Positions 24,854-50,610 of a DNA stretch of 64,000 nt are shown here, piece by piece (within the stretch, counting starts at the first letter, position 1; each line of letters starts with the position of its first letter). The position numbers and the translations under genes were made by a program. The notes beneath the pieces were generated by a model. It made no database searches, had not been told where the DNA came from, and saw only the letters and a program-made list of their open reading frames with translations. The stretch is from Ramlibacter agri (lineage in GTDB: Bacteria; Pseudomonadota; Gammaproteobacteria; Burkholderiales; Burkholderiaceae_C): assembly GCF_012927085.1 (NCBI RefSeq), contig NZ_JABBFX010000004.1:1-64000 (forward strand), given 5' to 3'.

Positions 24854-24976
24854 GCGAGTCGCGCCGGGCAGCGTCGTGATTTGCCGATGCCCCTCGCCAA
24901 GTTGCGCGCGGCGCTTCAGACCCAAAAGAGAACATAAATAGTTTTACGTTCTTGCTCGAATTCCTTATCATGAGTC

Positions 24977-26542
24977 ATGAAACGGATGAGTTGGCTTATA
25001 TCTTGGGTCGGGCGAACTGATCACGAGGCAGCTGAGAGCGGTGCCGAGCAGGACATTGGCCCCATAGCGACGGCGCTAGCTGGCCCCAAGCGGTACGACC
25101 GGATTTACCTGCTCACCAACTACCCCTTCGAGCGAAGCAGGCGCTATTGTCATTGGCTGCAGAAGCGCTCTGGGTACGGCGATAGCAGTGTCGACCTCTT
25201 TCAGGTTGATCTGCCGAGCCCAATTGACTACGCCGCCATTTACTCCGAAGTTTCGAAGAACCTGAAAGAGGCCCGACTCCCTCGGGACGATATAGACCTC
25301 ACGTTCCACTTGAGTCCGGGCACGCCCGCGATGGCGGCGATCTGGATCATCTTGGCGAAAACGCGCTTTCCCGCCACGCTGATTCAGACGTCTCGCGAGC
25401 GGGGGCTTGAGCCGGTGGACTTCTTCTTCGATCTGGCGAGCGACTTCCTGCCAGAGTTTCTCCAGCGCAGCGGCGATCGAATCGGGCGGCTCGCGACTGG
25501 GCTGACCGACACCGCTGCGGGCTTCGCCAAGATTCTCCATGCGAGCGACGTCATGCGACGTCATATAGCTCTGGCCCAACGAATAGCGGTGCACGAGGTT
25601 CCTGTGCTTGTCCTGGGCGAGACCGGGACCGGGAAGGAGCTGTTCGCCGAAGCCATCCACGCGACGAGCACCAGGTCTGACAAGCCGTTTCTCGCCGTAA
25701 ATTGCGGAGCCATCGCGTCCGAGTTGGCGAACTCCGAACTGTTTGGGCACAAGAAGGGCGCCTTCACTGGTGCGACCGCAAATCGTGCTGGACACTTCCG
25801 CGAGGCCGATGGAGGAACGCTTTTTCTCGACGAAGTGGGCGACCTTCCACCCGATACCCAGGTGCGGCTTCTCCGAGTCCTGCAGTCCGGAGAAGTTACC
25901 CCCGTAGGGGCGTCTGCTCCCGTCAAAGTGAACACTCGGGTCATTGCCGCAACCCATCGGGACCTGCCTGCCGACGTGGCCGGCGGGCGCTTCCGGGAAG
26001 ATCTTTTCCACCGATTGGCCGGCGGCATCTTGCGATTGCCGCCCCTCCGAGAGCGCGGCGAAGATGTGGCGCTGCTGATCGATGCCTTTTTGAAGCGCAT
26101 CAACCAGGATGCCCATGGCCGACCCGAGGCCCAGGAGAAAACGATCTCTCCGCAGGCGAGGGCCCTGTTGCTTGCGCACCCGTGGCCTGGAAACGTCCGG
26201 GAGCTCTATCACACCCTGGTTAGGGCCTCGATCTGGTCAACGACACCCCAGATCCAGCCTTCCGATGTGAGTTCGGCCGTTCTGCAGCCGTTCAAGCCTG
26301 GCGCGACGCTGCTCGATCAGCCCTTGGTGCCAGGTTTCAGCTTGCAGGAGGTGCTCGACGAAGTGACGAGAACTTACCTCTCTCGAGCCCTAAATCAGGC
26401 GGGCGGACGAAAGTCGGTTGCGGCATCGCTGCTTGGTTTCGCCAACTACCAGACGCTCGACAACCGCATGCGGAAGGTGCAACTGATGCCCGACGGTCAG
26501 ACTTCGGAGATCAAGTCAATAAAAAAATCAGATGAAAAATAA
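24977..26542 (+). CDS. RtcR-like sigma-54 activator with CARF-type sensor domain
   Basis: A 521-residue bacterial enhancer-binding protein. Residues 1-190 resemble the RtcR/CARF ligand-binding domain: LTNYPF near 42, and the loop HLSPGTPAM near 110-118 typical of CARF folds that bind RNA ends or cyclic oligonucleotides. The central AAA+ domain has Walker A GETGTGKE near 214, the sigma-54 contact loop GAFTGA at 261-266, LFLDEVGDLP, and the arginine-finger region FREDLFHRL. A Fis-type HTH ends the protein (GGRKSVAASLLGFANYQTL). RtcR normally controls rtcBA, but those genes are absent here. A -24/-12 promoter lies immediately downstream, so the next operon is the likely target. The start at 24977 is weakly supported; 24986 is possible. 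Confidence 0.88.
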   Translation: MKRMSWLISWVGRTDHEAAESGAEQDIGPIATALAGPKRYDRIYLLTNYPFERSRRYCHWLQKRSGYGDSSVDLFQVDLPSPIDYAAIYSEVSKNLKEARLPRDDIDLTFHLSPGTPAMAAIWIILAKTRFPATLIQTSRERGLEPVDFFFDLASDFLPEFLQRSGDRIGRLATGLTDTAAGFAKILHASDVMRRHIALAQRIAVHEVPVLVLGETGTGKELFAEAIHATSTRSDKPFLAVNCGAIASELANSELFGHKKGAFTGATANRAGHFREADGGTLFLDEVGDLPPDTQVRLLRVLQSGEVTPVGASAPVKVNTRVIAATHRDLPADVAGGRFREDLFHRLAGGILRLPPLRERGEDVALLIDAFLKRINQDAHGRPEAQEKTISPQARALLLAHPWPGNVRELYHTLVRASIWSTTPQIQPSDVSSAVLQPFKPGATLLDQPLVPGFSLQEVLDEVTRTYLSRALNQAGGRKSVAASLLGFANYQTLDNRMRKVQLMPDGQTSEIKSIKKSDEK

Positions 26543-26593
26543 GAAAAGTTATCCATTCTACTGCGTTCGCGTCCGTAAGTCATTGATTTACAA

Positions 26594-26630
26594 CGATTTG
26601 AATCGTGCTCGAAGGTGGAACAACTTTCGC
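26594..26630 (+). promoter_or_regulatory. Sigma-54 (-24/-12) promoter with adjacent palindrome
   Basis: TGGAAC-N5-TCGCA at 26616-26631 keeps the invariant GG (26617-26618) and GC (26629-26630) at the required 10-base interval. Transcription would start near 26642, 20 bases before the DUF4258 ATG. A small perfect palindrome, CGATT-TG-AATCG at 26594-26605, lies just upstream and could be part of an activator site, although enhancer sites are usually farther away. The adjacent gene encodes a sigma-54 activator. Confidence 0.65.
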
Positions 26631-26661
26631 AATACAGATGGCACACAGACTGGAGGCCATC

Positions 26662-27003
26662 ATGTTTTACAGCGAAGACCTGACTTGGGATACGTCAATC
26701 CCGGACCTGACCAAGCACGCAAGCATTCGTATGCAGCAGCGAGGCATCCGGCGGGAGGACGTCGACGCTGCACTTGCGTACGGACGGAGGATCCACGCCA
26801 AGGGCCTAACGTTCTTTGTGATCGGGGAGAAGGAGGTTCGGCGCTACTTGGACAAGGGCATCGACCTCGCTCAGATGGTGGGCGTGCAGGTACTGGTGTC
26901 CCGTGAGGGCGCGGTCGTTACCACGTATCGCAGCCGCGATCTCCACGCAATCAGGGTGACGCCACGCGCACACCGCCGTGCCCGGACCAAGCGTCCGCAC
27001 TGA
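26662..27003 (+). CDS. DUF4258-family small protein
   Basis: A 113-residue basic protein. The segment TKHASIRMQQRGI (about residues 16-28) with VTTYRSRDLHAIR near 88 matches the DUF4258 pattern, a small fold linked to RNase-type toxins. Start ATG 26662 follows GGAGG and sits 20 bases after the predicted sigma-54 start point, so this is the first gene of the induced operon. The C-terminus is rich in arginine and lysine, suiting nucleic-acid binding. Whether it is a toxin, an antitoxin-like partner or an RNA-binding sensor cannot be told from sequence. It is separated from the VWA gene by 23 bases with a good ribosome site. Confidence 0.7.
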   Translation: MFYSEDLTWDTSIPDLTKHASIRMQQRGIRREDVDAALAYGRRIHAKGLTFFVIGEKEVRRYLDKGIDLAQMVGVQVLVSREGAVVTTYRSRDLHAIRVTPRAHRRARTKRPH

Positions 27004-27026
27004 ATCAAGTCGAAGGAGACCGGAAC

Positions 27027-27827
27027 ATGGGCTGGGCAAGCATGAATGAAGACAACGAAAGCCGATTCTTCAACGCAACGATCATCAGGAACGAGGTAGA
27101 CAAGAAGATGAACACACCCAAGAACAGCCCCGAGAAGGGCGGCGCCATCACCAAGCTCAAGGCATTCGCGGCCCCTCAGGCGCGCCCGCTGCCCGTGATC
27201 ATCCTGGCGGACGTGAGTGGCAGCATGGCCGAGAACGGGAAGATCGAGGCACTCAACGTCGCGATCAAGCAGATGGTGACGAGCTTTGGCAAGGAGTCGC
27301 GCTTGCGCGCCGACATTCAGGTCGGACTGATCACCTTCGGTGGCCGTCAGGCTGACCTCCACCTTCCGTTGATCAGCGCTCATTCGGTCAGCGAAGTCGA
27401 GGCATTCACCGCGGTGGGGGCCACGCCCATGGGCGCGGCTTTCGAGCTCGCGAGGCAGTTGCTGGAAGACAAGGAGCGCGTGCCGGCGCGCGCGTACCGC
27501 CCGGTGCTGGTTCTCGTTTCGGACGGGGTGCCTACCGATGACTGGGAGAAGCCGCTGGCAGCGCTGAAGGGCAGCGAGCGTGCCCAGAAGGCCTCGCGAT
27601 TTGCGATGGCGATCGGTGCCGATGCGGACCGGGAACTGCTGGCGCAATTCGCCGACGACGTCGAGGCGCCGGTGTTCGAGGCACACGAAGCAGATGACAT
27701 CCGGCGCTTCTTCCGGGCAGTCACGATGAGTGTGGTGGCGCGCTCCTCCAGCCCTAGCCCGGACCAGCCGCTTACGCTCGATGTGAGCGAGATTCCTGCG
27801 GATGACCTCGACTTGGACGCCATCTGA
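27027..27827 (+). CDS. TerY-like von Willebrand factor A (VWA) protein
   Basis: A 266-residue VWA protein with a full MIDAS metal site: DVSGS at about residues 63-67, the threonine of GATPMGAAF near 131, and SDGVPTDDW near 167. This is the TerY pattern found in TerY-P triads, where a VWA protein, a PP2C phosphatase and a kinase are encoded together and regulate a stress or defence complex by phosphorylation. The 55-residue N-terminal tail is polar and disordered-looking. AAGGAGA precedes the ATG at 27027; a second ATG after it (27108) is less supported. The phosphatase gene starts directly at the stop codon. Confidence 0.88.
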   Translation: MGWASMNEDNESRFFNATIIRNEVDKKMNTPKNSPEKGGAITKLKAFAAPQARPLPVIILADVSGSMAENGKIEALNVAIKQMVTSFGKESRLRADIQVGLITFGGRQADLHLPLISAHSVSEVEAFTAVGATPMGAAFELARQLLEDKERVPARAYRPVLVLVSDGVPTDDWEKPLAALKGSERAQKASRFAMAIGADADRELLAQFADDVEAPVFEAHEADDIRRFFRAVTMSVVARSSSPSPDQPLTLDVSEIPADDLDLDAI

Positions 27828-28538
27828 ATGTTGCGAGCGGCAGGTGCGAGCGTCGCCGGGCCCGGCCACTTGCGGCTGGGAGAGGACAGCCAAGACGCCT
27901 TGTCCTTGAAGGGCTGGCGGGGCGGATGGATCGCAGCCGTCGCCGACGGCTTGGGTTCGCGAGCCCAAAGCGCCCGAGGCGCACGCGCCGCAGTCGAGGC
28001 GGCGCAGGCCGTGGCACGGACCTGGAAGCGGTCGGGCGAATGGCGTGACCTGCCGGCACGCCAGGTCGCCACGGACATCTACCGCCGGTGGCTCCGGGCG
28101 CTCCCTTGGAGTGACAAGTCGATGGCGGCCACTACCTTGCTGCTCGCCGTATGCGACGCGCATGGCTACGCGCGCGTATGGCAGATGGGGGACGGCCTGG
28201 TGATCAGCTTGGTGAACGGTCGCGCCGAGGTCCTGACCCCGACGCGAAGCGGATTCGGCAACGAGACGCGCGCACTGGGCACGGACACGTCCTGGTCTGC
28301 ATGGAACACGCAGGACGTCATTCTCGTTCGGCGTGGCGACGCGATCCTGCTGATGACCGATGGAATTTCCGACGACGTGCCTGGCGAACTGGTCGAAGGC
28401 TTCGCAATTGCAGTGCGGCGAGAGCTGCGTAAGCGGTCCCGGCGTGCCGGGCGCAAGTGGCTGCGCCGGGAGCTCACTCATTGGGCAACACCGGGGCACA
28501 CGGATGACAAGACCCTGGCTGCCATTTTTTTGGATTGA
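27828..28538 (+). CDS. PP2C-family protein phosphatase
   Basis: A 236-residue PPM/PP2C serine/threonine phosphatase, the second member of the TerY-P triad. Metal-binding motifs are present: GEDSQDAL near residue 18, AVADGLGSR near 37, TTLLLAV near 104, MGDGLVISL near 121 and LMTDGISDDV near 175, with a terminal HTDDKTL carrying the last aspartate. It probably removes phosphates placed by the kinase encoded next. It starts immediately after the VWA stop and ends just before the kinase start. Confidence 0.88.
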   Translation: MLRAAGASVAGPGHLRLGEDSQDALSLKGWRGGWIAAVADGLGSRAQSARGARAAVEAAQAVARTWKRSGEWRDLPARQVATDIYRRWLRALPWSDKSMAATTLLLAVCDAHGYARVWQMGDGLVISLVNGRAEVLTPTRSGFGNETRALGTDTSWSAWNTQDVILVRRGDAILLMTDGISDDVPGELVEGFAIAVRRELRKRSRRAGRKWLRRELTHWATPGHTDDKTLAAIFLD

Positions 28539-28546
28539 GAAGAAAC

Positions 28547-29974
28547 ATGGGAAAAACCTCCGAGCCCGCGGGCAGCCCACCCCCGCGCAAACCGCGTGTA
28601 ATGGATGACAAGGGAGGTGTGTACGAGCTGGGCAAGCGCATCGCCGAGGGCGGGCAAGGGATCGTGTGCCCCACGCAGGATCCACGCTTCCTCGTGAAGG
28701 TCAGCAGGCATCCAGCCGGCGATCCGCGAACGGAGGCATGGAGCCGGCAGATCGCCGCAGTCCAGCAAATGCCGATCGAGGAGAACGACCTGCCGATCGC
28801 GATGCCGGTGGCCTTGGTCACGAAACCGCGGCCGGGTTACGTCATGGAACTGATGGACGGACTCGTCCCGATGGAGGATGTGCTCCGGCAGGCGCACGAG
28901 CGTCTGCTTGCCGAAGACAGCCTGGCAGGTTTTCTCGCCACTGGCGGCCTCGCCCGCCGGCTTCGTCTGCTCGCCCGGCTCGGGCGCGTCCTGGCCCGGC
29001 TGCACGGGCTCGGTATCGCGCACGGGGACTTGTCTCCCAAGAACGTCTTCGTATCTCGTTCGGTCGAGCACGACCAAGTATGGCTGATTGACTGCGACAA
29101 CCTAACGTATGCGGTGAGGAACAGCGATCTGCAGATCTACACGCCAGATTACGGCGCACCGGAGATCTTTCGCGGTGAGCTCGGCATCAGCACCTATACG
29201 GACATCTGGAGCTTCGCCGTCATGGCGTTCCAGACGCTGACCCTCCTGCACCCCTTCAAGAGCGGCGCCTTGGTCGATGCGGACAGCGAACTGGAGACGG
29301 CGGCCTTTCGCGGCGACATCCCCTGGGTTGACCACGACAGCGACGAGCGCAATCGCGCCGCCGCTGGGCTGCCGAGAGAGTTCGTGTGTACGCCGCAACT
29401 TGTCGGGCTTTTCCAGCGCTGCTTCCAGGACGGCCTGAGCGCACCCGAACGTCGGCCCGTCATGGCGGAATGGGCGCAGGCGCTGGAGGCTGCGGCAGCC
29501 TTGCAGGTCCAATGCGAGGAGGACGATGGTGGCTGCGGCAGCACCTTTCTATGGTCCGAAGCCATGGAGTGCCCGTTCTGCGGGCAGGTGGGGCGAGGAG
29601 CGAAATCGTCCGTACTCATGGATCACCTGGTTTTCGCGCCCAAGTCGTTCTTGGGCGAGGATGCAAAGCCGCAAGACCAGTGGACCGTCACCGGCCAGGC
29701 GCAGGTCGTTGGCGTTACGCCCGTATCGCTGCGTCTATCACCCCCAGGCACTGCCAGCTTTCCGGACAGCCGGGCGCTCGCCTCCGTCTGGATCCAAGGT
29801 GGTGCGCTGACGATTCAGGTCGTTAGTGGCGAGAACGTGACGCTGCAGACGTCGGGTGTGAAGCAACTCGAACCTCTGCACGGCCGTGTCCGACTGCCTG
29901 CGCGTGGCGCCCGCATGGCGCTGCACCTGGGGCGGCTTGACGCGCCGCACGGCGTTTGGCGTTTGACTTGGTGA
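28547..29974 (+). CDS. Serine/threonine protein kinase with C-terminal zinc ribbon
   Basis: A 475-residue kinase, third member of the TerY-P triad. The glycine loop AEGGQGIV is near residue 34 and the catalytic lysine in FLVKVS near 49. The catalytic loop is HGDLSPKNVF near 158; the metal motif is DCDN where DFG is usual. APEIFRGELG and DIWSFAVMAFQ follow. After the kinase domain, CEEDDGGCG and CPFCG form a zinc ribbon (about 323-349), then a beta-rich FHA-like or unknown tail. The ATG at 28547 is preferred over an in-frame TTG at 28535. It probably phosphorylates one of the operon's ATPases when the sensor fires. Confidence 0.87.
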   Translation: MGKTSEPAGSPPPRKPRVMDDKGGVYELGKRIAEGGQGIVCPTQDPRFLVKVSRHPAGDPRTEAWSRQIAAVQQMPIEENDLPIAMPVALVTKPRPGYVMELMDGLVPMEDVLRQAHERLLAEDSLAGFLATGGLARRLRLLARLGRVLARLHGLGIAHGDLSPKNVFVSRSVEHDQVWLIDCDNLTYAVRNSDLQIYTPDYGAPEIFRGELGISTYTDIWSFAVMAFQTLTLLHPFKSGALVDADSELETAAFRGDIPWVDHDSDERNRAAAGLPREFVCTPQLVGLFQRCFQDGLSAPERRPVMAEWAQALEAAAALQVQCEEDDGGCGSTFLWSEAMECPFCGQVGRGAKSSVLMDHLVFAPKSFLGEDAKPQDQWTVTGQAQVVGVTPVSLRLSPPGTASFPDSRALASVWIQGGALTIQVVSGENVTLQTSGVKQLEPLHGRVRLPARGARMALHLGRLDAPHGVWRLTW

Positions 29975-29980
29975 GACCCG

Positions 29981-32900
29981 ATGCAGTTGCATGAATCCCC
30001 GCTGCTGCAGCCGGAAGTGCTGGTTGCGCGTCCCGCCGAACCATCGTTCGACCCTCAAGCCTGGGCCGTCAACGAAGAGGTCGTCGTACGGGCCGAGCAC
30101 GATGTCATCCTCGTTCGGCAGGGATCGCGCGTTGCGCGGCTCGCGCCAGGGCCGCAGTCCGGGCGACTGGAACAGCTGGCCTCTAATACCGACGTGCTCT
30201 GGCTGGTGGTGCGTGTGAAGGCCAACCAGATCGGGCTCAAGTGCATGGTGCCCGTCAGTGCGACCTCTTTCGAAAGGCTGGACTTGTCCGTGGACCAGCG
30301 CGTCGCGGACGAGTTGCACAGAAAGGGGCGCATCGATGTCCCCGGCGTAGCTGAAGCGATCGAATGGCTGAACGAGGAATTCGTGCAGGGGAGCGACCCG
30401 CAACGTGTGTTCGCCGTGGTTCACCCCCGGGGCGATGAGCGCAGGCTGCAGCTGCATGGCAGACGCTACCTGGCCGACCTTACACGGACAGCCGAGGGCC
30501 CCATCGTGGTGGATCGCGTGGCCGACCGGCCACGCAATTCCTTGGCTCCAATTGCCGTCCTTTCGGGGAAGATCGGTTTCGTCAATGTTGCGGATCCTCG
30601 TTCAGAGGTGCCGCACATTGACCGCACGCTGCTGGACAGCGCAGTCACCAGCTACGGCGCCTACCTGGATCTTTGGCGACTCTACAGCGAGAAGGAGTGG
30701 CAGCGGGATGTGGCGCGGGCAGCCGCGATTGGCGCGGTGCGCTATGACTCGTGGCGGCCGATCAGCGAGGAGGGAGGGGGCTGGATGTTGGCGATCGACG
30801 CCAGGCAGTTAGCGGACCTCAGGGATGCCTGGCGCGACCACGCGACGGACGACGACCAGGTCGAGCTGGACGAAAGTGCGCCGGAATGGACTTCGGAGCG
30901 CTATACCGACCTGAGTGCGGTGGATAAGCGTAAACGCGCGCGCGGACGACCCCAGTTCACACCCGATGGGATCCTTCTCAAGACCGACGACCGACTTGCG
31001 CCGCCTGAATCGGGTTTCGTCTATCTCTCACTCACCGGCAATCGCACGCAGCAGGAGCGACGGGACCGTGCGCGCCGCTCGATTGAAGCGGGTCTGGGGG
31101 TGCCGACTCTGAACCGGCTGTTGCAGGACCTGCCGCTGCCTTGGCAACGCCGGTCGACCCACGAAGGCCTGACGTCCTATGCGAGGCAAAGTTTCAGGGA
31201 GGGAAAACCCACGGAGATGCAGGAACGTGCGGTGAAGGTCGCACTGAATACGCCCGACGTGGCGCTGATCATCGGTCCGCCGGGAACGGGCAAAACGGAG
31301 GTGATTGCGGCTCTCGAGCGACAGCTGGCTGAACTCAACGAGGGTCGTGCGATCGCGCAGCAAGTGCTGATTTCGAGCTTTCAGCACGACGCCGTCGAAA
31401 CGGCGCTGGGGCGAACCGAGGTGTACGGACTGCCGGCGGTCAAGGTGGGTTCCAGGTCCCAGAGCGGTATCGATCCGGTCGAAACCTGGCGCTTGGCACA
31501 GCATGCGAAGGTGGCATCGGAACTGGAGTGCCTCGAGGAGCAGGAGCCCGCGGCGAAACTCCTGGAGCAACTCGATCGGATGCTCAATGAATTGTTGGTC
31601 GCGGGCGCTCCTGCGGATGTCCGGGGTGCAAAGTTCGATCTGCTGGAGCAGATACTGGACCAGCTTGCAACTGCGGCGCGGATCCGCACATCGCTCGACT
31701 GGCGCAGCAGGTGGGATGCCTACCGCGAGGCGACGCCAAGCATTCCTTCGTCGAGCGGCCAGCTGTCGGCCGTCACACGAAGGCAGCTGACCCGCGCGGT
31801 TCGATCCCTGCGTGTGCTGCCTGTCTCCTTCGAGGACGACGGACCGCGACGCGCATTGCTGGTCCTGCGTCTTGCACAGGGCTCCGCATGGTGTGCGCCT
31901 TCGCATGCAGAAGTTCTCGCGAAGCTGGCAGAGGTAACGGCACCATCTGTGGAGCAACTGGATGAGTTGCGCGGTATACGCGACGCGCTGTTGCGCCTCC
32001 TGCGGGTGGATCGCCGGCCGGCGAAGGTCCGCAAGACGCTGGACGAGGAGGCGGTCAAGCTGCTGGGCGAACTACAGCAGGAACTGGCCGCCAAGGTGGC
32101 GAAGTCGCGCGCCGGCGCCTACGGAGTAGTACGGCGCTTCGCGGACGCCCTCGTGTCGCAGCCAGCGTGGGTGCGGCGGGCGGTGGAGAACTACAGCAGC
32201 ATCGTGGGCGCCACCTGCCAGCAGTCGGCCAGTCGCATGATGACGCAGCTGAAGAACCTCTCGCCGGATGCTGCGCAGGCGATTCAGTTCCAGAGCGTGA
32301 TCATCGACGAGGCTGCACGGGCCAATCCCCTCGACCTGTTCATTCCCATGGCCATGGCCCGCCGCCGGATTGTTCTCGTCGGCGATCACCGGCAGTTACC
32401 ACACCTCTTGGACCCTGAGATCGAGGGAGACATCCGCGCCGAACGAGGCGACCAGGTGCAGGCCGATACCTACCGGCACAGCCTCTTCGAGCGGCTGTGG
32501 CGGCAGTTCACCAAGCGTCAGGAGGTCGACGGCATCCCGCGCGTTGTGATGCTGGACAAGCAGTTTCGGATGCACCCGACGCTCGGTGATTTTGTCAGCA
32601 AGAATTTTTACGAGGCGGCCGGGCTGGGCAAGGTGTCATCGGGCAAGGAAGCCTCCGACTTCCCAGAGACTGTTCCCATCTACGGTCGCGCAGTGTGTGC
32701 TTGGGTGGACGTGGCCGCTCACGAAGGTGCGGATACGAGGGTGGACGGCGGCAGTCGGCTTCGGTCTGCCGAGGCGGCTCGGACCGCACAGGAAGTCAAG
32801 CGCATGCTGGAGCAGCTCCCGCCCAATCAAAGCATCGGCGTGATCACCTTCTACTCGGCACAGCGAGACCGCATTTTTGAGGAACTGGCCCGGCTCGGGC

Positions 32901-33289
32901 TTGCCGAGAGGACGCAAGAGGGCTGGCGCATCAAGGATGAACATGCGTCGAACCCGCAATGTCGCGAGCGTCTGCGTGTCGGAACGGTCGACGCCTTCCA
33001 GGGCAAGCAGTTCGACGTGGTCTTCCTGTCCGTCGTCAGAAGCAGCACCAAAAGGCTTGAATGTCGTGCGGAGCAGGAGAGTGTGGATGCCTTCGAGCAG
33101 CTCGCCAGCCGGAAATATGGCCACTTGCGCAGCGCCAACCGTCTGAACGTGGCCATGAGCCGGCAACGGCGCCTCCTCATCGCCGTTGGCGACAAGAACA
33201 TGTTCATGGATGCTGCGGCAAAGGAGGCGGTACCGGAACTGTGCGCATTCCTGGACCTTTGCGATGCGGAGGCCGCCCATGTCGGCTGA
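29981..33289 (+). CDS. Superfamily 1 DNA/RNA helicase, UPF1/AAA_11-AAA_12 type
   Basis: An 1102-residue SF1 helicase. Walker A GPPGTGKTE is near residue 431, motif II IIDEAARANP near 773, motif III VGDHRQLPH near 797, the QFRMHP motif near 866, and C-terminal motifs VGTVDAFQGKQFDVV near 1002 and NVAMSRQRR near 1055. This is the COG1112 architecture shared with Mokosh-type and other antiphage helicases. The first 420 residues are of unknown fold and may be the specificity or partner region. An insertion between motifs I and II (about 500-760) is largely helical. It follows the kinase by 6 bases and overlaps the next gene by 11. Confidence 0.85.
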   Translation: MQLHESPLLQPEVLVARPAEPSFDPQAWAVNEEVVVRAEHDVILVRQGSRVARLAPGPQSGRLEQLASNTDVLWLVVRVKANQIGLKCMVPVSATSFERLDLSVDQRVADELHRKGRIDVPGVAEAIEWLNEEFVQGSDPQRVFAVVHPRGDERRLQLHGRRYLADLTRTAEGPIVVDRVADRPRNSLAPIAVLSGKIGFVNVADPRSEVPHIDRTLLDSAVTSYGAYLDLWRLYSEKEWQRDVARAAAIGAVRYDSWRPISEEGGGWMLAIDARQLADLRDAWRDHATDDDQVELDESAPEWTSERYTDLSAVDKRKRARGRPQFTPDGILLKTDDRLAPPESGFVYLSLTGNRTQQERRDRARRSIEAGLGVPTLNRLLQDLPLPWQRRSTHEGLTSYARQSFREGKPTEMQERAVKVALNTPDVALIIGPPGTGKTEVIAALERQLAELNEGRAIAQQVLISSFQHDAVETALGRTEVYGLPAVKVGSRSQSGIDPVETWRLAQHAKVASELECLEEQEPAAKLLEQLDRMLNELLVAGAPADVRGAKFDLLEQILDQLATAARIRTSLDWRSRWDAYREATPSIPSSSGQLSAVTRRQLTRAVRSLRVLPVSFEDDGPRRALLVLRLAQGSAWCAPSHAEVLAKLAEVTAPSVEQLDELRGIRDALLRLLRVDRRPAKVRKTLDEEAVKLLGELQQELAAKVAKSRAGAYGVVRRFADALVSQPAWVRRAVENYSSIVGATCQQSASRMMTQLKNLSPDAAQAIQFQSVIIDEAARANPLDLFIPMAMARRRIVLVGDHRQLPHLLDPEIEGDIRAERGDQVQADTYRHSLFERLWRQFTKRQEVDGIPRVVMLDKQFRMHPTLGDFVSKNFYEAAGLGKVSSGKEASDFPETVPIYGRAVCAWVDVAAHEGADTRVDGGSRLRSAEAARTAQEVKRMLEQLPPNQSIGVITFYSAQRDRIFEELARLGLAERTQEGWRIKDEHASNPQCRERLRVGTVDAFQGKQFDVVFLSVVRSSTKRLECRAEQESVDAFEQLASRKYGHLRSANRLNVAMSRQRRLLIAVGDKNMFMDAAAKEAVPELCAFLDLCDAEAAHVG

Positions 33290-34733
33290 ACGCTATCTTC
33301 GCTGGGACCACAGGGGGCCTCGGAGTCGGCAACAGTCGCTGCTTTGGCCTGTGGAGGTCTGGACGATCCTGGCGCCCGATGCGACTCGACGCCTGAACGT
33401 ATTCCAGGAAGCCATCCTCGGGCTGCTGCAAACTGGGATCCGCGATCGCCAGCAGCTGGCGAAGCTGCTGGGGCTGGAGGAGAGCCTCATCACCTTCGTT
33501 CTTGCTCACGAGATCATGCCTGCTGGCTGGGTCGACGGGCAGTTCCGGCTAACGCCCGCCGGAGAGGATCTCCTGTCCGGCGGCATCGATACCCAAGGCG
33601 CGCCGTCGCTGCAGTACGCCTATCGGGATAGCGTGTTCGGACGCTGGCTGCCCCGTGTTAGCCGCGATCTGCCCGACGTCTATCCGCTTGAGATGGGCGC
33701 GCAAAGGTTCCCAGCATTCCGCGACAGCCGGGAGGGCGGCGGAGAGGTTCGACCCTTTTTGCTCCCGCGCCGGCAGGACGTCTCCACGCCCGCCAAGGCG
33801 GACATCCTGAAGGCGTGGCGCGCCGGCTTGCGGGATGCACTGCGGGCTGATGGCGACGAGGAGGGCGTTCCGGAGATCCGCAGCGACGACATCGAGATCC
33901 TCGGGAACGAGCCCACGCTGGCCTACGTGTGGTGCGAGGTCATCCACGTCCCCGGCGACCTTCACCCGTGGCTGGTGACGGATCCCTGGCGCATCACGCC
34001 GGTCGCCAGATGGCTGCGAGAACCGTTGCAGGCGAGCCTGGACTCGATGCCGACGCTGGAGCGCCGCATTTCCGCCGTGCTCCCTGCGGCAGATGCTTCA
34101 GTGCTGTCCGCCGATGCGCTGAGCAGGCAAATTGAGCGAGATGTGGAAATGCGTCTCTCCCGTTGGCCCGCACTGGACGTGCCCGGCCTGTCGGAGTTGA
34201 AGCACCACGTGGGGAGGGTGATGCGACAGAAGGCCAGGACGGAGACGCTGGAGAAGGCCACGCAGGAAGAACTAGCCAGCCTGGTGCAGGAGTGTGGGTC
34301 CCTTCTGGAAGCGCTGGTGCAGTGGATGCTGGAGAACTGGCCGGTCGGTGAAATCGTCTGGCCGCGCGATGGCCAGAACCGAGGTGCCGCGGAAGCCATG
34401 CTCGATGCCGTCCCCCTTCGCGCTCCGCTGCCTGAGCGCAGCAGGGGCATGCTGGCCGGCCAGAACTTTCGGGACGTTCGCCTTGCCGCGAGATCCCGCG
34501 ATCGACCCTTCAAGGCATTGCTGTTCGCCGCGCTGCTTTCGACGCACGCCCACCCAGATCACCCGTTGCGCGAGCTTGACGACGCGCAAGTGCAATGGGA
34601 ACGGCTCCTGGACTTGATCGGTATGCGCAACAAGGGCGCACATGCGAGCGGCAGACGTCTGCAGCGGGGGGACGCTCTCTCTGAAGCTGGCTTCGCGATT
34701 GGCTGGTTCGAGAATTTTTCCAAGTATTTTTGA
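33279..34733 (+). CDS. wHTH protein with C-terminal HEPN-like RNxxxH motif
   Basis: A 484-residue protein that I do not recognise as a named family. Residues about 30-95 look like a winged helix (GLLQTGIRDRQQLAKLLGL, then QFRLTPAGEDLL). The middle region is mixed alpha/beta with WRITPVARWLREPL near 245. The last 100 residues are helical and contain R450-N451-x3-H455 in GMRNKGAHASG, the Rx4-6H signature of HEPN ribonucleases, on a helix following DLIG. The ATG at 33279 overlaps the helicase stop; longer frames start inside the helicase. If the HEPN domain is active, this could be the RNA-cleaving effector of the operon. Confidence 0.7.
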   Translation: MSAERYLRWDHRGPRSRQQSLLWPVEVWTILAPDATRRLNVFQEAILGLLQTGIRDRQQLAKLLGLEESLITFVLAHEIMPAGWVDGQFRLTPAGEDLLSGGIDTQGAPSLQYAYRDSVFGRWLPRVSRDLPDVYPLEMGAQRFPAFRDSREGGGEVRPFLLPRRQDVSTPAKADILKAWRAGLRDALRADGDEEGVPEIRSDDIEILGNEPTLAYVWCEVIHVPGDLHPWLVTDPWRITPVARWLREPLQASLDSMPTLERRISAVLPAADASVLSADALSRQIERDVEMRLSRWPALDVPGLSELKHHVGRVMRQKARTETLEKATQEELASLVQECGSLLEALVQWMLENWPVGEIVWPRDGQNRGAAEAMLDAVPLRAPLPERSRGMLAGQNFRDVRLAARSRDRPFKALLFAALLSTHAHPDHPLRELDDAQVQWERLLDLIGMRNKGAHASGRRLQRGDALSEAGFAIGWFENFSKYF

Positions 34734-34748
34734 AGAGGTCCAAAGAAA

Positions 34749-37145
34749 ATGGGCAAGAAGGCCAAGAACAATCAAGTGGGACGTCCCGCGATCCCGCAAC
34801 CCGTCACCACGGCGTCGCCCGCACCTTCGGCGCTCGTGCGGCTGATGGCTTCGGTCTCGCAAATTGCGCCCCTGGTCGGGGAGTCCGTTCCGGGGTGGTC
34901 GGAAGACACGGTCAAGGGATTCGTCACCAAGCTGCCGGAGGGCGATCGGAGCCCGTTCCTGACGTTTGTCGACGACTTCGCGCGCTTGGGCGCCAGAGCA
35001 CGGGAGGTCCATGACGAGGTCAAGGCAAAGGAGACATCCCTGGAGGATGGGCGCGCAGCACTACAGGCAGACCGTGAGGGACTGGTGGTCGAAAGGGCGT
35101 CGATGGACGAGGCGCGCTCCCGGTTCGATGCCGATGCCTTGAAGCTGGCAACTGAACGCGATGAGGTCTCCAGGCTTCGCAATGAGCTCGTCGGGGCCAA
35201 GCAGGAACTCGCTCTGAGGGAGGCTGAAGTGCGGGGTGGCCTCGTGCTCGAGCGCGAGGCGTCGCTAAAGGTCCTGCAGGAGCAGATCCTCGCCCTCGAA
35301 CGGCAGCGAGATCAACTTCCGTCCGAAGTTTCCCGGCGCCGGCAGGAACTCCTGGAGGAAGCCCGGCGTGAGGCAGCCCACGTGCTGGAAGCGGCACAGG
35401 AGCAGGCTGCTTCCCTCGAGCAGAAGGAAACTGAACTGGCGCTACAGGACGTCGGCCTTAAAAGGCGCGAGAACAAGATCCGAGTCGAAGAGGAGGTCCT
35501 TCGCACCCGTCAGAGAAACCTCCAGGAAGACGCCCGACAGCATGCCAAGGACCTCCTAGAGGAGAAGGAGACGGAGATCGCCCGGCACGTGCGGGAGATC
35601 GAGCGGCTGCGCAAGGTGGTAAGCGGGCAGCAGTCCGAACTCGATGAACTTGACGCACTTCGGCAGGTGACCGGGGACGATCCTGAGAAACTTCTACATG
35701 ACGTGGAGTCACTGCGTGCGCACAACAAGGAACTGGATCGCAAACTGCAGGAGATGCGCTCCAGCCAGTCCGAGGGTGACGCCAAGGAACTCCGGGAACA
35801 GCGCGATGCGTTGCAGCGAAGTCTTGATGCGGCGAAGGGCGAGCTGTTTGGCCTGCGACAGCAGGAGGAACAGTGGAAGCTCAGCGTGATGGAAAGGGAG
35901 AACGCCGAGACGATGCGCGTGGTGCTCGAAAAACACAAGGCGCTGCTGGGTAGCGCGGTGCAGGAGCTTCGAGCGCAGGTGGATGACCTCATAGACCAGG
36001 GCAAGGAGGCAACCGCCTTCCCCGAGCTCACGCGCATGGACAAGGAGCTCGCGCTGCGGATTCCCACGGTACCTGCGCCGGCCCTGTCGGCCTTGGTTGG
36101 CGACCTGCAGGCCCGCATCGCGCACGCAGAGGAGGGGAAACAGTTGCATTTTTCCAAGGAGGTCCTGCAGCTGTTCGTGGGCGGCCTGGCGATGAGCCGA
36201 CTGCACATTTTCCAGGGCATCAGCGGGACCGGCAAGACCAGCTTGGCAACGGCGTTCTGCGCAGCCATCGGCGCCACTTGCACGGTGGTACCCGTTCAGG
36301 CGGGATGGCGCGACCGGGCCGATCTGATCGGGCACTACAACGCCTTCGAGAAGCGGTACTACGAAAAGGACACGTTGCAGGCGCTGTACCGCGCGCAGAC
36401 CGAAGCACAGGGCGACATGCTGCACGTCGTCCTTCTGGACGAGATGAATCTGTCGCGGCCCGAGCAATACTTCGCGGAGTTCCTGTCGGCGATGGAGGTC
36501 TCACAGGCCAAGCGGCTCATCACGCTCATGGAGTCGCGCCCTGCGAGCGGTGCGCCCGCGCTGCTGGTGGATGGACGCCAAATCCGCTTGCCCGCTAACC
36601 TGTGGTTCATCGGCACGGCTAATCATGACGAAACCACCAACGCGTTCGCGGACAAAACCCATGACCGTGCCTTCGTGCTTGAACTACCCAAGCATGGCCC
36701 GTCCGCTGAAAGGATCGCACGACCGTCTGACCGTGTGACCTGGTCATTCGACAGCCTGATGCACCTGTTCGATGAAGCCCGCAGGAAGCATGCGACGCAC
36801 GTGAAAAAACTGCTCTCCGCGCTCGATTCCTGCCGCCTCACGAAGATCCTGAACGATAGCTTCGGTCTGGGCTGGGGCAACCGCTTGGAGCAACAGATGG
36901 TCCGCTTCATGCCTGTGGTGCTGGAGTGCGGGGGCACCGAGGCTCTGGCCCTCGACCATATGCTGGCGACCCGCATGTTCCGCGACGGAAAGGTCACCGG
37001 CCGGCACGACAAGCGCGCCGACGACCTGCGCGTTGTGGAAGACGCGCTGAACGCGTTCTGGAGAGATGCCAAGCTCGGGGATACGCCGACGTCCTGCCTC
37101 ACGGCGATCGAAGCCGACATCCAGCGGTTGGAGCGCGGCGGATGA
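34749..37145 (+). CDS. McrB-like AAA+ GTPase/ATPase with long coiled coil
   Basis: A 798-residue protein. Residues about 85-420 form a nearly continuous coiled coil rich in E, R, L and Q. The AAA+ domain follows: Walker A GISGTGKTS near 490, a McrB-type Walker B VVLLDEMNLSRPEQYF near 560, sensor 1 WFIGTANHDETT near 620. McrB proteins form hexamers that drive an McrC nuclease; here the coiled coil replaces the usual N-terminal DNA-binding domain and could span, sense or assemble on DNA. The ATG follows GAAGAGG, 15 bases after the HEPN-like gene. It ends in an ATGA overlap with the DUF2357 gene, the expected McrC-side partner. Confidence 0.87.
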   Translation: MGKKAKNNQVGRPAIPQPVTTASPAPSALVRLMASVSQIAPLVGESVPGWSEDTVKGFVTKLPEGDRSPFLTFVDDFARLGARAREVHDEVKAKETSLEDGRAALQADREGLVVERASMDEARSRFDADALKLATERDEVSRLRNELVGAKQELALREAEVRGGLVLEREASLKVLQEQILALERQRDQLPSEVSRRRQELLEEARREAAHVLEAAQEQAASLEQKETELALQDVGLKRRENKIRVEEEVLRTRQRNLQEDARQHAKDLLEEKETEIARHVREIERLRKVVSGQQSELDELDALRQVTGDDPEKLLHDVESLRAHNKELDRKLQEMRSSQSEGDAKELREQRDALQRSLDAAKGELFGLRQQEEQWKLSVMERENAETMRVVLEKHKALLGSAVQELRAQVDDLIDQGKEATAFPELTRMDKELALRIPTVPAPALSALVGDLQARIAHAEEGKQLHFSKEVLQLFVGGLAMSRLHIFQGISGTGKTSLATAFCAAIGATCTVVPVQAGWRDRADLIGHYNAFEKRYYEKDTLQALYRAQTEAQGDMLHVVLLDEMNLSRPEQYFAEFLSAMEVSQAKRLITLMESRPASGAPALLVDGRQIRLPANLWFIGTANHDETTNAFADKTHDRAFVLELPKHGPSAERIARPSDRVTWSFDSLMHLFDEARRKHATHVKKLLSALDSCRLTKILNDSFGLGWGNRLEQQMVRFMPVVLECGGTEALALDHMLATRMFRDGKVTGRHDKRADDLRVVEDALNAFWRDAKLGDTPTSCLTAIEADIQRLERGG

Positions 37146-38995
37146 AGGTCTGGGATCGCCATGCGGGTCAGGAGGTTGAGCTGCCGGCGACGGTGGAGCC
37201 CGGACGATTCCAGTTGCTGGCGCCGTGCGTTCTCAATGGGCACGCGTCCCTCGACAAGGGCGACATCCTCTGGGGGGATGGCAATGTGCGCTGCGTCCTA
37301 TCCACCGACGGCGCAGACCGAAACTTCGCACTTCCGGTGGCGGGGTCCGCGGGAGATTCGCCCAACCCGCTGATCGACGAAGCTGTCGGTGCGGTGACAG
37401 ATGGGATCCTGGACGGCGAGCTGCCATCGCCCATCATGCCCGCGCAACTCGAGAAGCACGTGGACCTGCTGGACATCGAGAGGCTTCTTTCCGAACTCCT
37501 CGATGCCGGGCATCTGCAGGCGATCTCGCAGCGGCCAAGACTCGACATGCGCTATGACGCGGAGGTGCTGCCGGTCTCCCGCGCCAGAAGGCTGGCGCAG
37601 GACGCGCTGACAACGCTGGCGTCCAACTCGAGAGACTGGAGCCGCCGCCGCATCACGGGGATCGTGCCTGCGCGACTGAAGGCCTTGGTCAGCGAGGACG
37701 AGCACGCCATCTACGAGAACGTGGTTTTCGCGCGGCTGATCGACCGTGTCTTGGCGCACCTCCGTGCCCGAATCCACGAGGTGCTGCAACTGCTGGAAAA
37801 GCACGAGCTAGCAAAGCAGCTCTCGGATGCGCAGCATCTGGATCACCGGCTGCGCCAGGAGATCTGCGCGCTGTGGGGCCAGTCCTTTGCCGACAACCCG
37901 GAAGCAGGTGCGCGAGCGAAGGAAACCCATGAAGTGCTGACGAGCCTGTACGGCAAGGTTAGGCAGCTGGAGCATCGTGGGCTGTATCCGCATGTCCCTC
38001 GCAACATGAATGTTCCCATTGCCCTACGGAACACGAACATCCTCCAGCACGATCCTCACTACCGGCACCTGCGTCCACTCTGGTTGCTGGTGAACTCCGG
38101 CGCCGCCAGGGAAGTGCAGACACCGCAGCAGAAGTTCGAGACGGCCAAGGCGCGGGGTGCAAGGTACGCGGCATTCATCGAGCTGTTGGTGCGGAAGGCG
38201 TTGGATGCCAGCGCCCTGCTTGCCTGGGACGACGTGGGCCGGTCGGCGGCCTTCGGCCCCTGGGAACTGCGGCTGCGATTGGAGCAGGGCGCTTGCAGCC
38301 TGGAGCTTCTCGACGATCAGGGTGCTCGTGCTGACCGGTTGACGATGGTGGCTGGCTGGCGGGGTCGGTTACCTTGGCAGCAGCAGCGCGAAGACTACTA
38401 CGTGTTCTTTTGCCACGATAGCGAGTCAATGGATGACGAGCTTGGCGAAAACAGCGTTCTCCATCCATTGCAGTTCTACGCGGTGGAGAGGGTGCGGCTA
38501 GCCATCGAGAAATGGCTGCTCAAGCAGGTGCTGAGGTGCTATCCCTTCGCGGTTGCGCCAATTCCGGGAGACCTTCAGGGCGCCATCATTGCCGCGGCGG
38601 AGGCGAAGGTGCAGAAGGCGGGTCATGGGGTCAAGCTTGTGGGACTGCTAACGCCCAGGATTGAGGCCGATGTGGAGGGCATCGTGCAACGAAGTTCCGC
38701 CAACGGACCTACCAAGAGCGGGCTCCTTTCGTCACTCAAGCTGGTGCGCATCATTGGGTTGTGCCGCGTTTGCGGGCACCGTCTCCACCCTTCGTCATTT
38801 CACGGCTCGGATAGTGGCTTCAAGGCCCACTGCGGGCAGTGCGGCGCGACCTGGACGCTGGCGGTGGTCGATGGTAGGGCTCGGGTTGAGTACCGAATCG
38901 GGAAGGTGGAACGTCCGTTCTCTGAGGTGGGGTGCAGAGAAATGACGCTGGCTTGGTTGGTCCGAGGGGCGCGCATTGACGCCCCCTCCGGCTAG
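37142..38995 (+). CDS. DUF2357 / McrC-like nuclease-partner protein with zinc ribbon
   Basis: A 617-residue protein translated with the McrB-like gene (ATGA overlap). The first 130 residues are beta-rich. The central helical part (ENVVFARLIDRVLAHL near 200) is typical of DUF2357, the domain that precedes a PD-(D/E)XK nuclease in McrC-like proteins. Residues about 340-480 hold the expected nuclease-fold region (AAFIELLVRKAL, ELRLRLEQGACSLEL), but I cannot fix the catalytic residues with certainty. CRVCGHRL and CGQCGATW near 540-570 form a C-terminal zinc ribbon. It is probably the DNA-cleaving or DNA-binding output of the operon and its last gene. Confidence 0.78.
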   Translation: MKVWDRHAGQEVELPATVEPGRFQLLAPCVLNGHASLDKGDILWGDGNVRCVLSTDGADRNFALPVAGSAGDSPNPLIDEAVGAVTDGILDGELPSPIMPAQLEKHVDLLDIERLLSELLDAGHLQAISQRPRLDMRYDAEVLPVSRARRLAQDALTTLASNSRDWSRRRITGIVPARLKALVSEDEHAIYENVVFARLIDRVLAHLRARIHEVLQLLEKHELAKQLSDAQHLDHRLRQEICALWGQSFADNPEAGARAKETHEVLTSLYGKVRQLEHRGLYPHVPRNMNVPIALRNTNILQHDPHYRHLRPLWLLVNSGAAREVQTPQQKFETAKARGARYAAFIELLVRKALDASALLAWDDVGRSAAFGPWELRLRLEQGACSLELLDDQGARADRLTMVAGWRGRLPWQQQREDYYVFFCHDSESMDDELGENSVLHPLQFYAVERVRLAIEKWLLKQVLRCYPFAVAPIPGDLQGAIIAAAEAKVQKAGHGVKLVGLLTPRIEADVEGIVQRSSANGPTKSGLLSSLKLVRIIGLCRVCGHRLHPSSFHGSDSGFKAHCGQCGATWTLAVVDGRARVEYRIGKVERPFSEVGCREMTLAWLVRGARIDAPSG

Positions 38996-40256: not shown

Positions 40257-40535
40257 GTGTCCAAGCCGCCGTCGATGCGAGGCAGTCCATTGCGTTGTTT
40301 CGACGACAGGTTGATGGTGAATTCAGAGGTCAGGCGCGTTGGCCAAGGCCGAATCAACGCGGCCCTCGTCAGAGCAAAGATCGCCGACCAGTGCACGACT
40401 CAGCCAGCAGCGCAGGTCTTCAAGTGGTCGACCTCCTCGCGTCGGAGGTTCGTCGCGTTTTACGTGGAAACTTCGACCGGCCGGATGCGATACAGGCAGG
40501 CGCGATTGGATGCCTATTGCAGCGTCAGCTACTAA
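40257..40535 (+). CDS. Hypothetical protein, 92 residues
   Basis: A short frame with strong third-position GC bias, the best argument that it is real. AGGAAGG lies just ahead of the GTG at 40257 (a TTG three bases earlier is also open). The product is basic (DRLMVNSEVRRVGQGRINAA near 20, SSRRRFVAFYVETSTGRMRY near 60) with no recognised motif. It converges on the minus-strand helicase gene and overlaps its end by 11 bases. About 165 bp upstream toward the HTH gene hold no other gene. Confidence 0.4.
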   Translation: MSKPPSMRGSPLRCFDDRLMVNSEVRRVGQGRINAALVRAKIADQCTTQPAAQVFKWSTSSRRRFVAFYVETSTGRMRYRQARLDAYCSVSY

Positions 40536-43500: not shown

Positions 43501-43575
43501 TGCCGAACCTTCGTTGAGAATCGCCGAAACATGACTGATCGTCTGCTTCTGAAAGGCCTTTGGCTTTCGGCTCAT
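40525..43575 (-). CDS. SNF2-like superfamily 2 helicase of the DUF6361-PLD operon
   Basis: A 1016-residue helicase. Motif I DEAGLGKT is at residues 32-39, motif II FDEFQRF near 237, motif III LSATPYEAL near 275, and motif VI QREGRVARFSG near 905 after TSVGQEGLDFHTW. The long central region (about 330-800) is a family-specific insertion. The ATG at 43575 overlaps the PLD stop (ATGA) and has GGGAGG upstream. The three-gene order DUF6361, PLD nuclease, helicase suggests a DNA-targeting defence complex in which the helicase translocates and the PLD protein cuts. I cannot tie it to a named system with certainty. Confidence 0.83.
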   Translation of the reverse strand: MSRKPKAFQKQTISHVSAILNEGSARRFLVADEAGLGKTMVARGVIQNLADLKRGRLTVFYVCSSQPIASQNADSLLSFLDNDKEIAKARAKADRPSLLPLSELPSHREVRLFTLTPMTMYSGGRRGLQRGHALERALACAFLHNVVGKPLQRVQNHLSMGVGGFGDMVRRYRADLAAKVAESDVDTKRFLKAFRLELMMALKVSRGRLWEVLESLRQERPVVMASIVRNVMAAAVLRALKPDLVIFDEFQRFRELMARGDGDLSKDLRMHGSQRRIIDVVLARDESVKLLMLSATPYEALTAGVGARHRHEDGDSDFFRIVDFLFEHHNQGASHRRKIREQFSLMEAELRKSAYRSAELAQARDELRRMLLKVMCRTERPPQQRHDLQIEAPALLPADLKAFGELATSMDNGVQSWAVPLWASVPAPIQTLGSKYKCWNNTSFKGTQPIIKRKQVDEGVIPRNWPHPKLRGMLDALPPKTLALPWIRPSLEWWRSRGPWAAANTSKLDGKLLVFSRFAATPGAVSGLVSYEVETRMLGSRPTGKTYESVGKASHFKVKADAPALFTLFFASSFLASLDPLASGFPRTVSAAKNALCRQLRARINAEVVNKVKRPLMKPHVLLIALEKRQQTWPAARDAWVKALAAGGSVSKAAALSAVRDWENKAKSDFTALSQSEFDLLVDLALDLPGVVVERALRRHWPGARDQRETIQMLLVNGFRRYFDKPWFASSLAGNGSGAATEGSKRPKDYPSDLRAAVVAGNLESVLDEHFWTMSNSGKSWDEGIEELTDALNVSGGRSRLRERGKGTLRIDLRCHVAMPLHPAKSDADSLPGERPARPDQVRHAFNSPFWPHVVSTTSVGQEGLDFHTWCRSVCHWDPARGPVELEQREGRVARFSGLSIRLALAQQATLDQREKGESPWKAVARWATSLEDSHTQMTPWWCVDQATTVQCNFAPAGSREHQQGAMLERARALYRMVLGATNPGPLLEELEADDNVTPDLAATAAINLRPPPLSS

Positions 43576-48392: not shown

Positions 48393-48420
48393 GTAGCCTT
48401 TCATGTGGAGGAAAACCGGC

Positions 48421-48450
48421 ATGCGCGTTACCTTCGGAATTCGGTTATGA
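48421..48450 (+). CDS. Nine-codon leader ORF coupled to the RmuC-like gene
   Basis: An ATG with GGAGG at good spacing opens a nine-codon frame (MRVTFGIRL) whose TGA overlaps the ATG of the RmuC-like gene (ATGA at 48447-48450). The RmuC-like ATG itself has only a weak ribosome site, so this mini-ORF may load ribosomes for it. The alternative is that translation starts in frame at the GTG at 48405, giving a 14-residue longer RmuC-like protein. Confidence 0.4.
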   Translation: MRVTFGIRL

Positions 48451-50450: not shown

Positions 50451-50610
50451 CCAGAGTAGTGGCTGGTTCAAAACGGAATCACGCGCGAACGCAATTTATT
50501 CGAGTGGTCTATTGACGAGGTGATTGGCCGAGCGATGGGCTTGGAGTTGAAAGGACTCGAGGATTTGGTGTCAAACGGCGGCTAGGCAGACGCTGAGGAA
50601 CGGAAACAAG

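What the first reader, a model, noticed from the sequence alone, without database searches (positions are those of the whole stretch)
26662..38995. Phospho-regulated defence operon joining a TerY-P triad, SF1 helicase, HEPN-like protein and McrBC-like pair
VWA, PP2C and kinase genes form a TerY-P triad. They are followed by a UPF1-like helicase, a HEPN-motif protein, a coiled-coil McrB and a DUF2357 protein with near-zero spacing. Sensor, promoter, phospho-switch and effectors are contiguous, so this is a strong candidate for a multi-gene system not yet studied as a unit.
Basis: partly seen in the sequence, partly recalled or inferred. Interest (0 to 1): 0.87.

Follow-up and report, generated by a model that had tools for sequence, protein, structure and literature searches.

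The report
RtcR-controlled Type II CoCoNuT defence operon
This nine-gene stretch is a bacterial defence system of a kind already described in print, predicted to cut RNA; what looks new is a conserved DNA switch in front of it that may turn it on when RNA in the cell is broken.

Summary
The genes at 24977-38995 form a Type II CoCoNuT, named and predicted as an RNA-targeting Type IV restriction system by Bell et al. 2024 (PMC11090510): NxD GTPase motif, one HEPN RxxxxH motif, UPF1-like helicase, TerY-P triad with kinase zinc ribbon, DUF2357-type CnuC, upstream RtcR and a DUF4258 (BrnT-like) gene. I found no experiments on this type in the papers I could search. New here: a conserved control module before the operon, made of a palindromic enhancer, a sigma-54 -24/-12 box and, in part of the loci, an IHF-like site. 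The box is in 33 of 41 loci with RtcR and 2 of 8 without (those two on cut contigs); the window's own box is weak. The same palindrome lies before rtcR in 15 of 37. Twelve of 20 loci with a non-adjacent rtcR have a second box after rtcR, so the CoCoNuT may be induced in parallel with the DNA-restriction genes, not after them as proposed.

The parts
24933..24968 (.). palindrome like the enhancer motif, 8 nt before the rtcR start: candidate RtcR operator / autoregulation site
   Evidence: held-out scan with the matrix learned at CoCoNuT promoters, p=0.005 by 200 shuffles
24977..26542 (+). RtcR-type CARF-AAA+-HTH sigma-54 activator (RtcR_PspF2)
   Evidence: PDLC01995 E=9.5e-190; PF00158 E=2e-65; each position of GAFTGA kept in 20 or 21 of 21 relatives
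26518..26553 (.). palindromic upstream activating sequence (candidate RtcR site), overlapping the rtcR stop
   Evidence: palindrome-constrained EM on 25 loci, 204.7 against a shuffled maximum of 74.5 at width 36; the window's own site is a middling one (10.4)
26576..26588 (+). IHF-like site TAAGTCATTGATT
   Evidence: 9 of 9 to YAANNNNTTGATW (consensus recalled), p=0.02, 26 nt from the -24 box
26615..26631 (+). sigma-54 -24/-12 box GTGGAACAACTTTCGCA
   Evidence: GG-N10-GC, 9 of 13 consensus positions; not significant alone (p=0.11) but placed like the better boxes of relatives
26662..27003 (+). DUF4258 (BrnT/RelE-like) small protein, first gene after the promoter
   Evidence: PF14076 E=4.6e-7; relatives
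27027..27827 (+). TerY-like VWA protein, MIDAS-type residues kept
   Evidence: PF00092 E=5.7e-13; D35, S37, S39, T106, D139 in 35 of 35 full ORFs
27828..28538 (+). PP2C phosphatase, conserved aspartates kept
   Evidence: PF13672 E=6.4e-35; D40, D122, D178, D227 in 48 of 48
28547..29974 (+). Ser/Thr kinase with C-terminal zinc ribbon (alternative start TTG 28535)
   Evidence: PF00069 E=7.9e-11; C323, C330, C342, C345 in 49 of 49
29981..33289 (+). CnuH, UPF1-like SF1 helicase
   Evidence: PF13087 E=1.1e-36, PF13086 E=5.3e-30; MkoA-like E=1.1e-82
33279..34733 (+). CnuE, winged helix plus one HEPN-type motif (RNKGAH)
34749..37145 (+). CnuB, coiled coil fused to McrB-type GTPase with NxD motif (NHDE at residue 625)
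   Evidence: N, D and E of NHDE in 46 of 46 (numbered there from an inner ATG at 34845)
37142..38995 (+). CnuC: N-terminal beta strands, DUF2357-like helical part, C-terminal zinc ribbon, no conserved nuclease triad
   Evidence: AlphaFold mean pLDDT 85.6; DUF2357 in 26 of 35 aligned members; C544, C564, C567 in 45 of 45

Best explanation
This is a Type II CoCoNuT (coiled-coil nuclease tandem) under RtcR/sigma-54 control. Inferred mechanism: phage attack or other damage produces RNA ends with 2',3'-cyclic phosphate; [quoted passage not shown] RtcR assembles on the palindromic enhancer, IHF bends the DNA where its site exists, and sigma-54 polymerase starts at the -24/-12 box before the DUF4258 gene. 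The transcript yields a TerY-P phosphorylation switch, the CnuH helicase with its HEPN partner CnuE, and the CnuBC GTPase complex, which together recognise and cut RNA (target unknown). HEPN cleavage may make more cyclic-phosphate ends and so feed back on RtcR. Shown by sequence here: gene content, order, conserved active-site residues, the conserved cis-module and its statistical link with RtcR. Inferred: ligand, RNA as target, phospho-control, defence role.
For: Family hits; type-defining motifs; seven genes in order in 44 of 51 loci, six of the rest contig-cut; set found through CnuC alone: 2 of 2 uncut loci have all seven, 2 of 2 cut ones have CnuE-CnuB-CnuC. sigma-54 box in 35 of 47 upstream regions against 1 of 47 on their reverse strand. 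Box in 18 of 21 loci with adjacent rtcR and 15 of 20 with rtcR elsewhere on the contig, but 0 of 6 with no full-length RtcR_PspF2 in the genome; these six genomes do have sigma-54. Palindrome found by EM above shuffles for 25 loci and for 10 divergent ones, and again, held out, before rtcR in 15 of 37 loci against 4 of 191 control regions. A UAS, an IHF site and a sigma-54 site are named for E. coli rtcBA (PMC9650030, passages).
Against: No experiment. The window's own box scores only 9 of 13 and is not significant alone. Two further loci, L020 and L028, have the box (11 and 13 of 13) although their assemblies hold no RtcR_PspF2; their contigs end 0.7 and 2.3 kb upstream, so with them the count without RtcR is 2 of 8. 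Eight of 41 loci with RtcR have no strict box. The IHF-like site reaches p<=0.05 in 8 of 15 DUF4258-first but only 4 of 22 VWA-first loci. Loci are related (19 clusters at 60% CnuB identity), the score cut-off of 10 was set after seeing the scores, and the loci without RtcR are few and partly divergent. HEPN and dead-nuclease folds were not established by fold search. Phospho-control rests on conserved residues only.
Confidence: 0.74

Rival explanations
1. A chance defence-island neighbourhood: an independent TerY-P triad, a helicase/HEPN pair and a Type IV McrBC system that happen to lie together.
For: The window is a defence island with other systems; six other genomes of 61 have weak McrB-like matches (neighbourhoods not examined).
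Against: Same seven genes in the same order and strand in 44 of 51 loci, mostly with short gaps, and in 2 of 2 uncut loci found by CnuC alone.
Confidence: 0.03
2. A Type III-A CoCoNuT rather than Type II.
For: Shares TerY-P, CnuH, CnuE and RtcR association with Type III-A (PMC11090510).
Against: One RxxxxH and no RxH in CnuE; CnuC is 617 aa with a C-terminal zinc ribbon, and none of the 35 aligned members matches an Hsp70 family at E<=0.1.
Confidence: 0.04
3. A Mokosh-type system (MkoA helicase-kinase, MkoB) with extra genes.
For: CnuH scores MkoA E=1.1e-82, CnuE MkoB E=3.5e-7, kinase MkoA E=9.9e-11.
Against: The CnuE match covers about 130 residues only, kinase and helicase are separate genes, and the McrBC-like pair, phosphatase and VWA are fixed parts. 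Best read as a shared helicase plus winged-helix-effector ancestry.
Confidence: 0.05
4. The operon is a Type II CoCoNuT but is read mainly from constitutive or host promoters; the sigma-54 box and palindrome are minor or decayed, and RtcR serves other genes.
For: The window's own box is weak (9 of 13); 8 of 41 loci with RtcR have no strict box and 2 of 8 without RtcR have one.
Against: Where present, the box sits at a nearly constant place before the first gene and mostly follows RtcR; the palindrome recurs before rtcR.
Confidence: 0.16

Closest known systems
Type II CoCoNuT (Bell et al. 2024, PMC11090510; abstract and sections 7, 9 and 11 read, passages elsewhere; no figures or supplements seen)
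   Same: RtcR, BrnT-like gene, VWA, PP2C, kinase-zinc ribbon, CnuH, CnuE with one HEPN, CnuB with NxD and coiled coil, CnuC with DUF2357 and zinc ribbon
   Different: The paper infers RtcR control and a superoperon read in gene order; the passages returned for sigma54, promoter and upstream activating name no site. Here a conserved enhancer and sigma-54 box sit directly before the operon in most loci
E. coli / Salmonella RtcR-rtcBA (PMC9650030, PMC7790460; passages only)
   Same: CARF-domain activator of sigma-54; a UAS and an IHF site are named for E. coli rtcBA
   Different: Drives RNA repair (RtcA, RtcB), not RNA cleavage
Mokosh (PADLOC models MkoA/MkoB)
   Same: related helicase, kinase and winged-helix protein
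   Different: No fixed McrBC pair or TerY-P triad (recalled); matches partial
TerY-P stand-alone systems (as told in PMC11090510)
   Same: VWA, PP2C, kinase triad
   Different: Here the kinase ends in a zinc ribbon, not an OB fold, and the triad is fixed to CnuH-E-B-C

Membership tests
CoCoNuT (any type) | McrB-like GTPase with NxD motif | tested here: met
   NHDE in the window; N, D and E in 46 of 46 aligned CnuB
CoCoNuT (any type) | long coiled coil fused to the GTPase | tested here: met
   SMC-type coiled-coil profile matches over residues 78-414; no coiled-coil program was run
Type II CoCoNuT | UPF1-like SF1 helicase CnuH with large insertion after Walker A | tested here: met
   PF13087/PF13086; Walker A at residue 432, DEAA at 776-779; that the insertion is helical was not modelled
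Type II CoCoNuT | SmpB-like OB fold and RelE-like domain at the CnuH N-terminus | not tested
Type II CoCoNuT | CnuE: wHTH plus a single HEPN with RxxxxH | tested here: met
Type II CoCoNuT | CnuC with DUF2357 and zinc ribbon | tested here: met
   DUF2357 in 26 of 35 aligned members, not in the window protein itself; C544, C564, C567 in 45 of 45
Type II CoCoNuT | N-terminal beta-sandwich in CnuC | tested here: inconclusive
   seven strands in residues 2-62 of a confident model, fold not identified
Type II CoCoNuT | inactivated PD-(D/E)xK domain in CnuC | tested here: inconclusive
   no D...(D/E)xK triad among the conserved columns, but the fold searches did not identify the domain
Type II CoCoNuT | TerY-P triad with kinase-zinc ribbon (frequent, not core) | tested here: met
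Type II CoCoNuT | RtcR upstream, often with a BrnT-like gene (frequent, not core) | tested here: met
   PDLC01995 E=9.5e-190; DUF4258 gene 26662-27003; that DUF4258 equals the paper's BrnT-like protein is inferred from position and size
Type III-A CoCoNuT | two HEPN motifs (RxxxxH and RxH) in CnuE and Hsp70-like unit fused to CnuC | tested here: not met
   one RxxxxH and no RxH in CnuE; no Hsp70 match at E<=0.1 in 35 aligned CnuC
Mokosh | MkoA and MkoB as the system's proteins | tested here: inconclusive
   partial matches; no phylogeny made
anti-phage defence system | protects against phage | not testable with these tools
   needs an experiment

The most novel reading that the evidence does not exclude
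Type II CoCoNuTs carry their own RtcR/sigma-54 control module (palindromic enhancer, in part of the loci an IHF site, -24/-12 box), the same enhancer also marks rtcR in part of them, and where other genes lie between rtcR and the CoCoNuT there are often two sigma-54 boxes. So an RNA-damage signal would switch on both arms at once, and the published idea that gene order in one long transcript delays the suicidal arm would need revision. (Odds lowered from 0.60 in my draft: the recount gave both boxes in 12 of 20 such loci and the box in 2 of 8 without RtcR.)
Probability: 0.56. Interest if true: 0.62.

Novelty: new member of a known kind. Interest (0 to 1): 0.47.

Why it matters
The operon adds a complete Type II CoCoNuT with adjacent rtcR on a 54-kb tRNA-Val integrated element. 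The control module gives exact DNA sites and promoters to test whether broken RNA is the alarm for this defence, so far argued in what I read from gene neighbourhood and from RtcR of RNA repair, and whether its DNA-cutting and RNA-cutting arms are timed in series or in parallel.

Tried and rejected

Rows and choices: 30 of 78 pattern stretches were not confirmed by the tool. L040, L043, L060 (no VWA) and L044 (too short upstream) left out of 51, giving 47 upstream regions; L044 is counted among the 44 with a cut VWA. RtcR was called present if a match covering nearly the whole PDLC01995 profile reached E<=1e-170 (cut chosen after seeing the gap) or if my RtcR profile matched directly upstream; three of the 21 adjacent ones are imperfect (L026 partial, L030 with an internal stop, L032 cut by the contig). 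L023 was not held for and is counted from the locus itself; the IHF list leaves out loci with box score under 9, L014 and L056. further leaves out RtcR-adjacent VWA-first loci except L049, leaving 25; searches used 18 of those 25 sites. One search used 200 shuffles for rtcR and 100 for controls. G762 (E=0.001) was not followed. L060's and L026's full-length rtcR lie on other contigs.

Full report
What is there. The region 24977-38995 holds nine genes on the + strand, packed end to end. Family searches name an RtcR-type activator, DUF4258, VWA, PP2C, kinase, UPF1-like helicase, a winged-helix protein, a coiled-coil AAA protein and an unassigned protein. The last, CnuC, has no Pfam match itself, but 26 of 35 aligned members match DUF2357, best E 3.9e-7.

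What it is. Ten features of a Type II CoCoNuT as given in PMC11090510 (abstract and sections 7, 9, 11 read) were listed: seven were met, two were inconclusive and one was not tested (Membership tests). The GTPase carries NHDE, the shortened NxD motif, kept in 46 of 46; CnuE carries a single RNKGAH with R, N and H kept in 49 of 49; the kinase ends in a four-cysteine ribbon kept in 49 of 49; CnuC keeps three cysteines in 45 of 45. Type III-A is excluded by the single HEPN motif and the lack of an Hsp70 match. AlphaFold models of CnuC (mean pLDDT 85.6) and CnuE (87.0, pTM 0.51) show N-terminal strands, long helices and a C-terminal strand-rich part for CnuC, and a winged helix plus a helical C-terminal half for CnuE. 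The HEPN and dead-nuclease folds were not proven by fold search.

Is the association fixed? A scan of one genome per species with a three-sequence CnuH alignment gave 48 loci, and two plasmid records were added. Counting the window, 44 of 51 loci hold VWA, PP2C, kinase, CnuH, CnuE, CnuB and CnuC in that order on one strand; six of the other seven end at a contig edge and one, the divergent L056, lacks a recognisable CnuC. Because that set was chosen by CnuH, I repeated the test from CnuC: 3 of 369 genomes of the class, 4 of 398 of the phylum (one marginal, not followed) and 1 of 399 of the order have a match, the window's own genome included each time. Both new loci with enough upstream DNA hold all seven genes and both cut ones hold CnuE-CnuB-CnuC.

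The control module. Directly before the first gene of the operon (DUF4258 or VWA) most loci have a sigma-54 box, GG-N10-GC with at least 10 of 13 consensus positions (consensus recalled): 35 of 47 regions, against 1 of 47 on their reverse strand; 32 of 47 are at p<=0.05 against shuffles. It is present in 18 of 21 loci with adjacent rtcR and 15 of 20 with rtcR elsewhere on the contig. It is present in 0 of 6 loci whose genome has no full-length RtcR_PspF2 match, but also in L020 and L028, 2 of 2, whose assemblies have no such match either and whose contigs end 0.7 and 2.3 kb upstream. Fisher's test of 33 of 41 gives p=0.0003 against 0 of 6 and p=0.004 against 2 of 8; it ignores kinship, and the loci form 19 clusters at 60% CnuB identity. 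The six genomes have sigma-54. In 11 of 15 DUF4258-first loci the best IHF-like match lies 26-27 nt upstream of the box; 8 of 15 of these loci, but only 4 of 22 VWA-first ones, reach p<=0.05.

The palindrome. Further up lies gtAAaAAtatTTaC-N6-GtAAataTTtTTac, found by a palindrome-constrained search (score 201.1 against a shuffled maximum of 64.7 at width 34). In the width-36 run it lies 60-65 nt from the box in 18 and 72-75 nt, about one helical turn more, in 5 of 25 loci. Ten divergent representatives still exceed shuffles, 82.6 against 57.8. A matrix made from 18 of these sites finds the same palindrome within 250 nt before rtcR in 15 of 37 loci at p<=0.01, 13 of the 15 within 43 nt, against 4 of 191 control regions; the window has it at 24933-24968. 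A UAS, an IHF site and a -24/-12 site are named for E. coli rtcBA (PMC9650030, passages).

A point against a published detail. Bell et al. propose that RtcR starts the expression of the whole cluster, DNA-restriction genes first and the CoCoNuT last, so that the suicidal arm is delayed (section 11); they allow for internal RtcR-independent promoters. Of 22 full-length rtcR genes not directly before a CoCoNuT on the same strand, 19 have a strict sigma-54 box 1-15 nt after the stop, 15 of 22 at p<=0.05; L034, L036 and L048 have none. Before the CoCoNuT, 15 of the 20 such loci with rtcR on the same contig have a box, and 12 of the 20 have both, one of them (L054) with rtcR on the other strand. 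The gap from the box to the preceding same-strand ORF is 54-236 nt in 14 of 15 and 532 nt in L054. If both boxes work, the two arms are induced together. This is an inference from sequence.

How it most likely works. RtcR senses RNA ends with cyclic phosphate (shown for Salmonella RtcR, PMC7790460, passages), binds the palindrome and drives the operon; TerY-P sets a phosphorylation state; CnuH and CnuE act as helicase and RNase; CnuB and CnuC form a GTPase complex that may find the target. The last three steps rest on family knowledge and on conserved active-site residues. The host has sigma-54 and RtcB.

Limits. The window's own box is weak (9 of 13, p=0.11) and a whole-window scan would not pick it out. 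Nothing here shows phage defence, RNA cutting or phospho-control. In print I found no experiments on Type II CoCoNuTs and no named sigma-54 site for them; this rests on searches and the passages, in a library that lacks most subscription journals.

Noticed in passing
2982-3032 and 57284-57334: A 51-bp exact direct repeat covering the 3' end of tRNA-Val, with an integrase gene at 3197-4597: the window appears to hold a whole 54-kb integrated element.
   Followed up: partly
7995-22317: Three same-strand genes (BrxHII/DrmD-like helicase, PglX/IIG-like methyltransferase, YprA/DruE-like helicase) resembling ARMADA of PMC12458937 (passages only), upstream of the CoCoNuT; the last carries a Peptidase_S24-like stretch just under the Pfam cut-off.
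   Followed up: partly
23546-24853: MobA/MobL-type relaxase directly before rtcR, also matching PADLOC DpdH.
   Followed up: no
40525-46698 (-), 47414-48322 (-): ZacABC-like genes (PADLOC names) with a WYL regulator beside the CoCoNuT; by annotation the Rhodoferax plasmid L012 has WYL, PLD and helicase genes at 25754-32729 beside its CoCoNuT too.
   Followed up: partly
48405-57033: RmuC protein with long coiled-coil-like part, then a 1233-aa, a 413-aa and a DUF7281 protein; the last three have no PADLOC match at E<=1e-5: a possible undescribed operon.
   Followed up: no
L056, L057: Divergent CoCoNuT-like loci in Anaerobiospirillum and Paenibacillus with larger gaps and weak CnuE (L056, L057) and weak or missing CnuC matches.
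   Followed up: no
L030, L052: Apparent damage: one in-frame TGA in the rtcR of L030's genome, and a CnuH frame matched over only 64% in L052.
   Followed up: no
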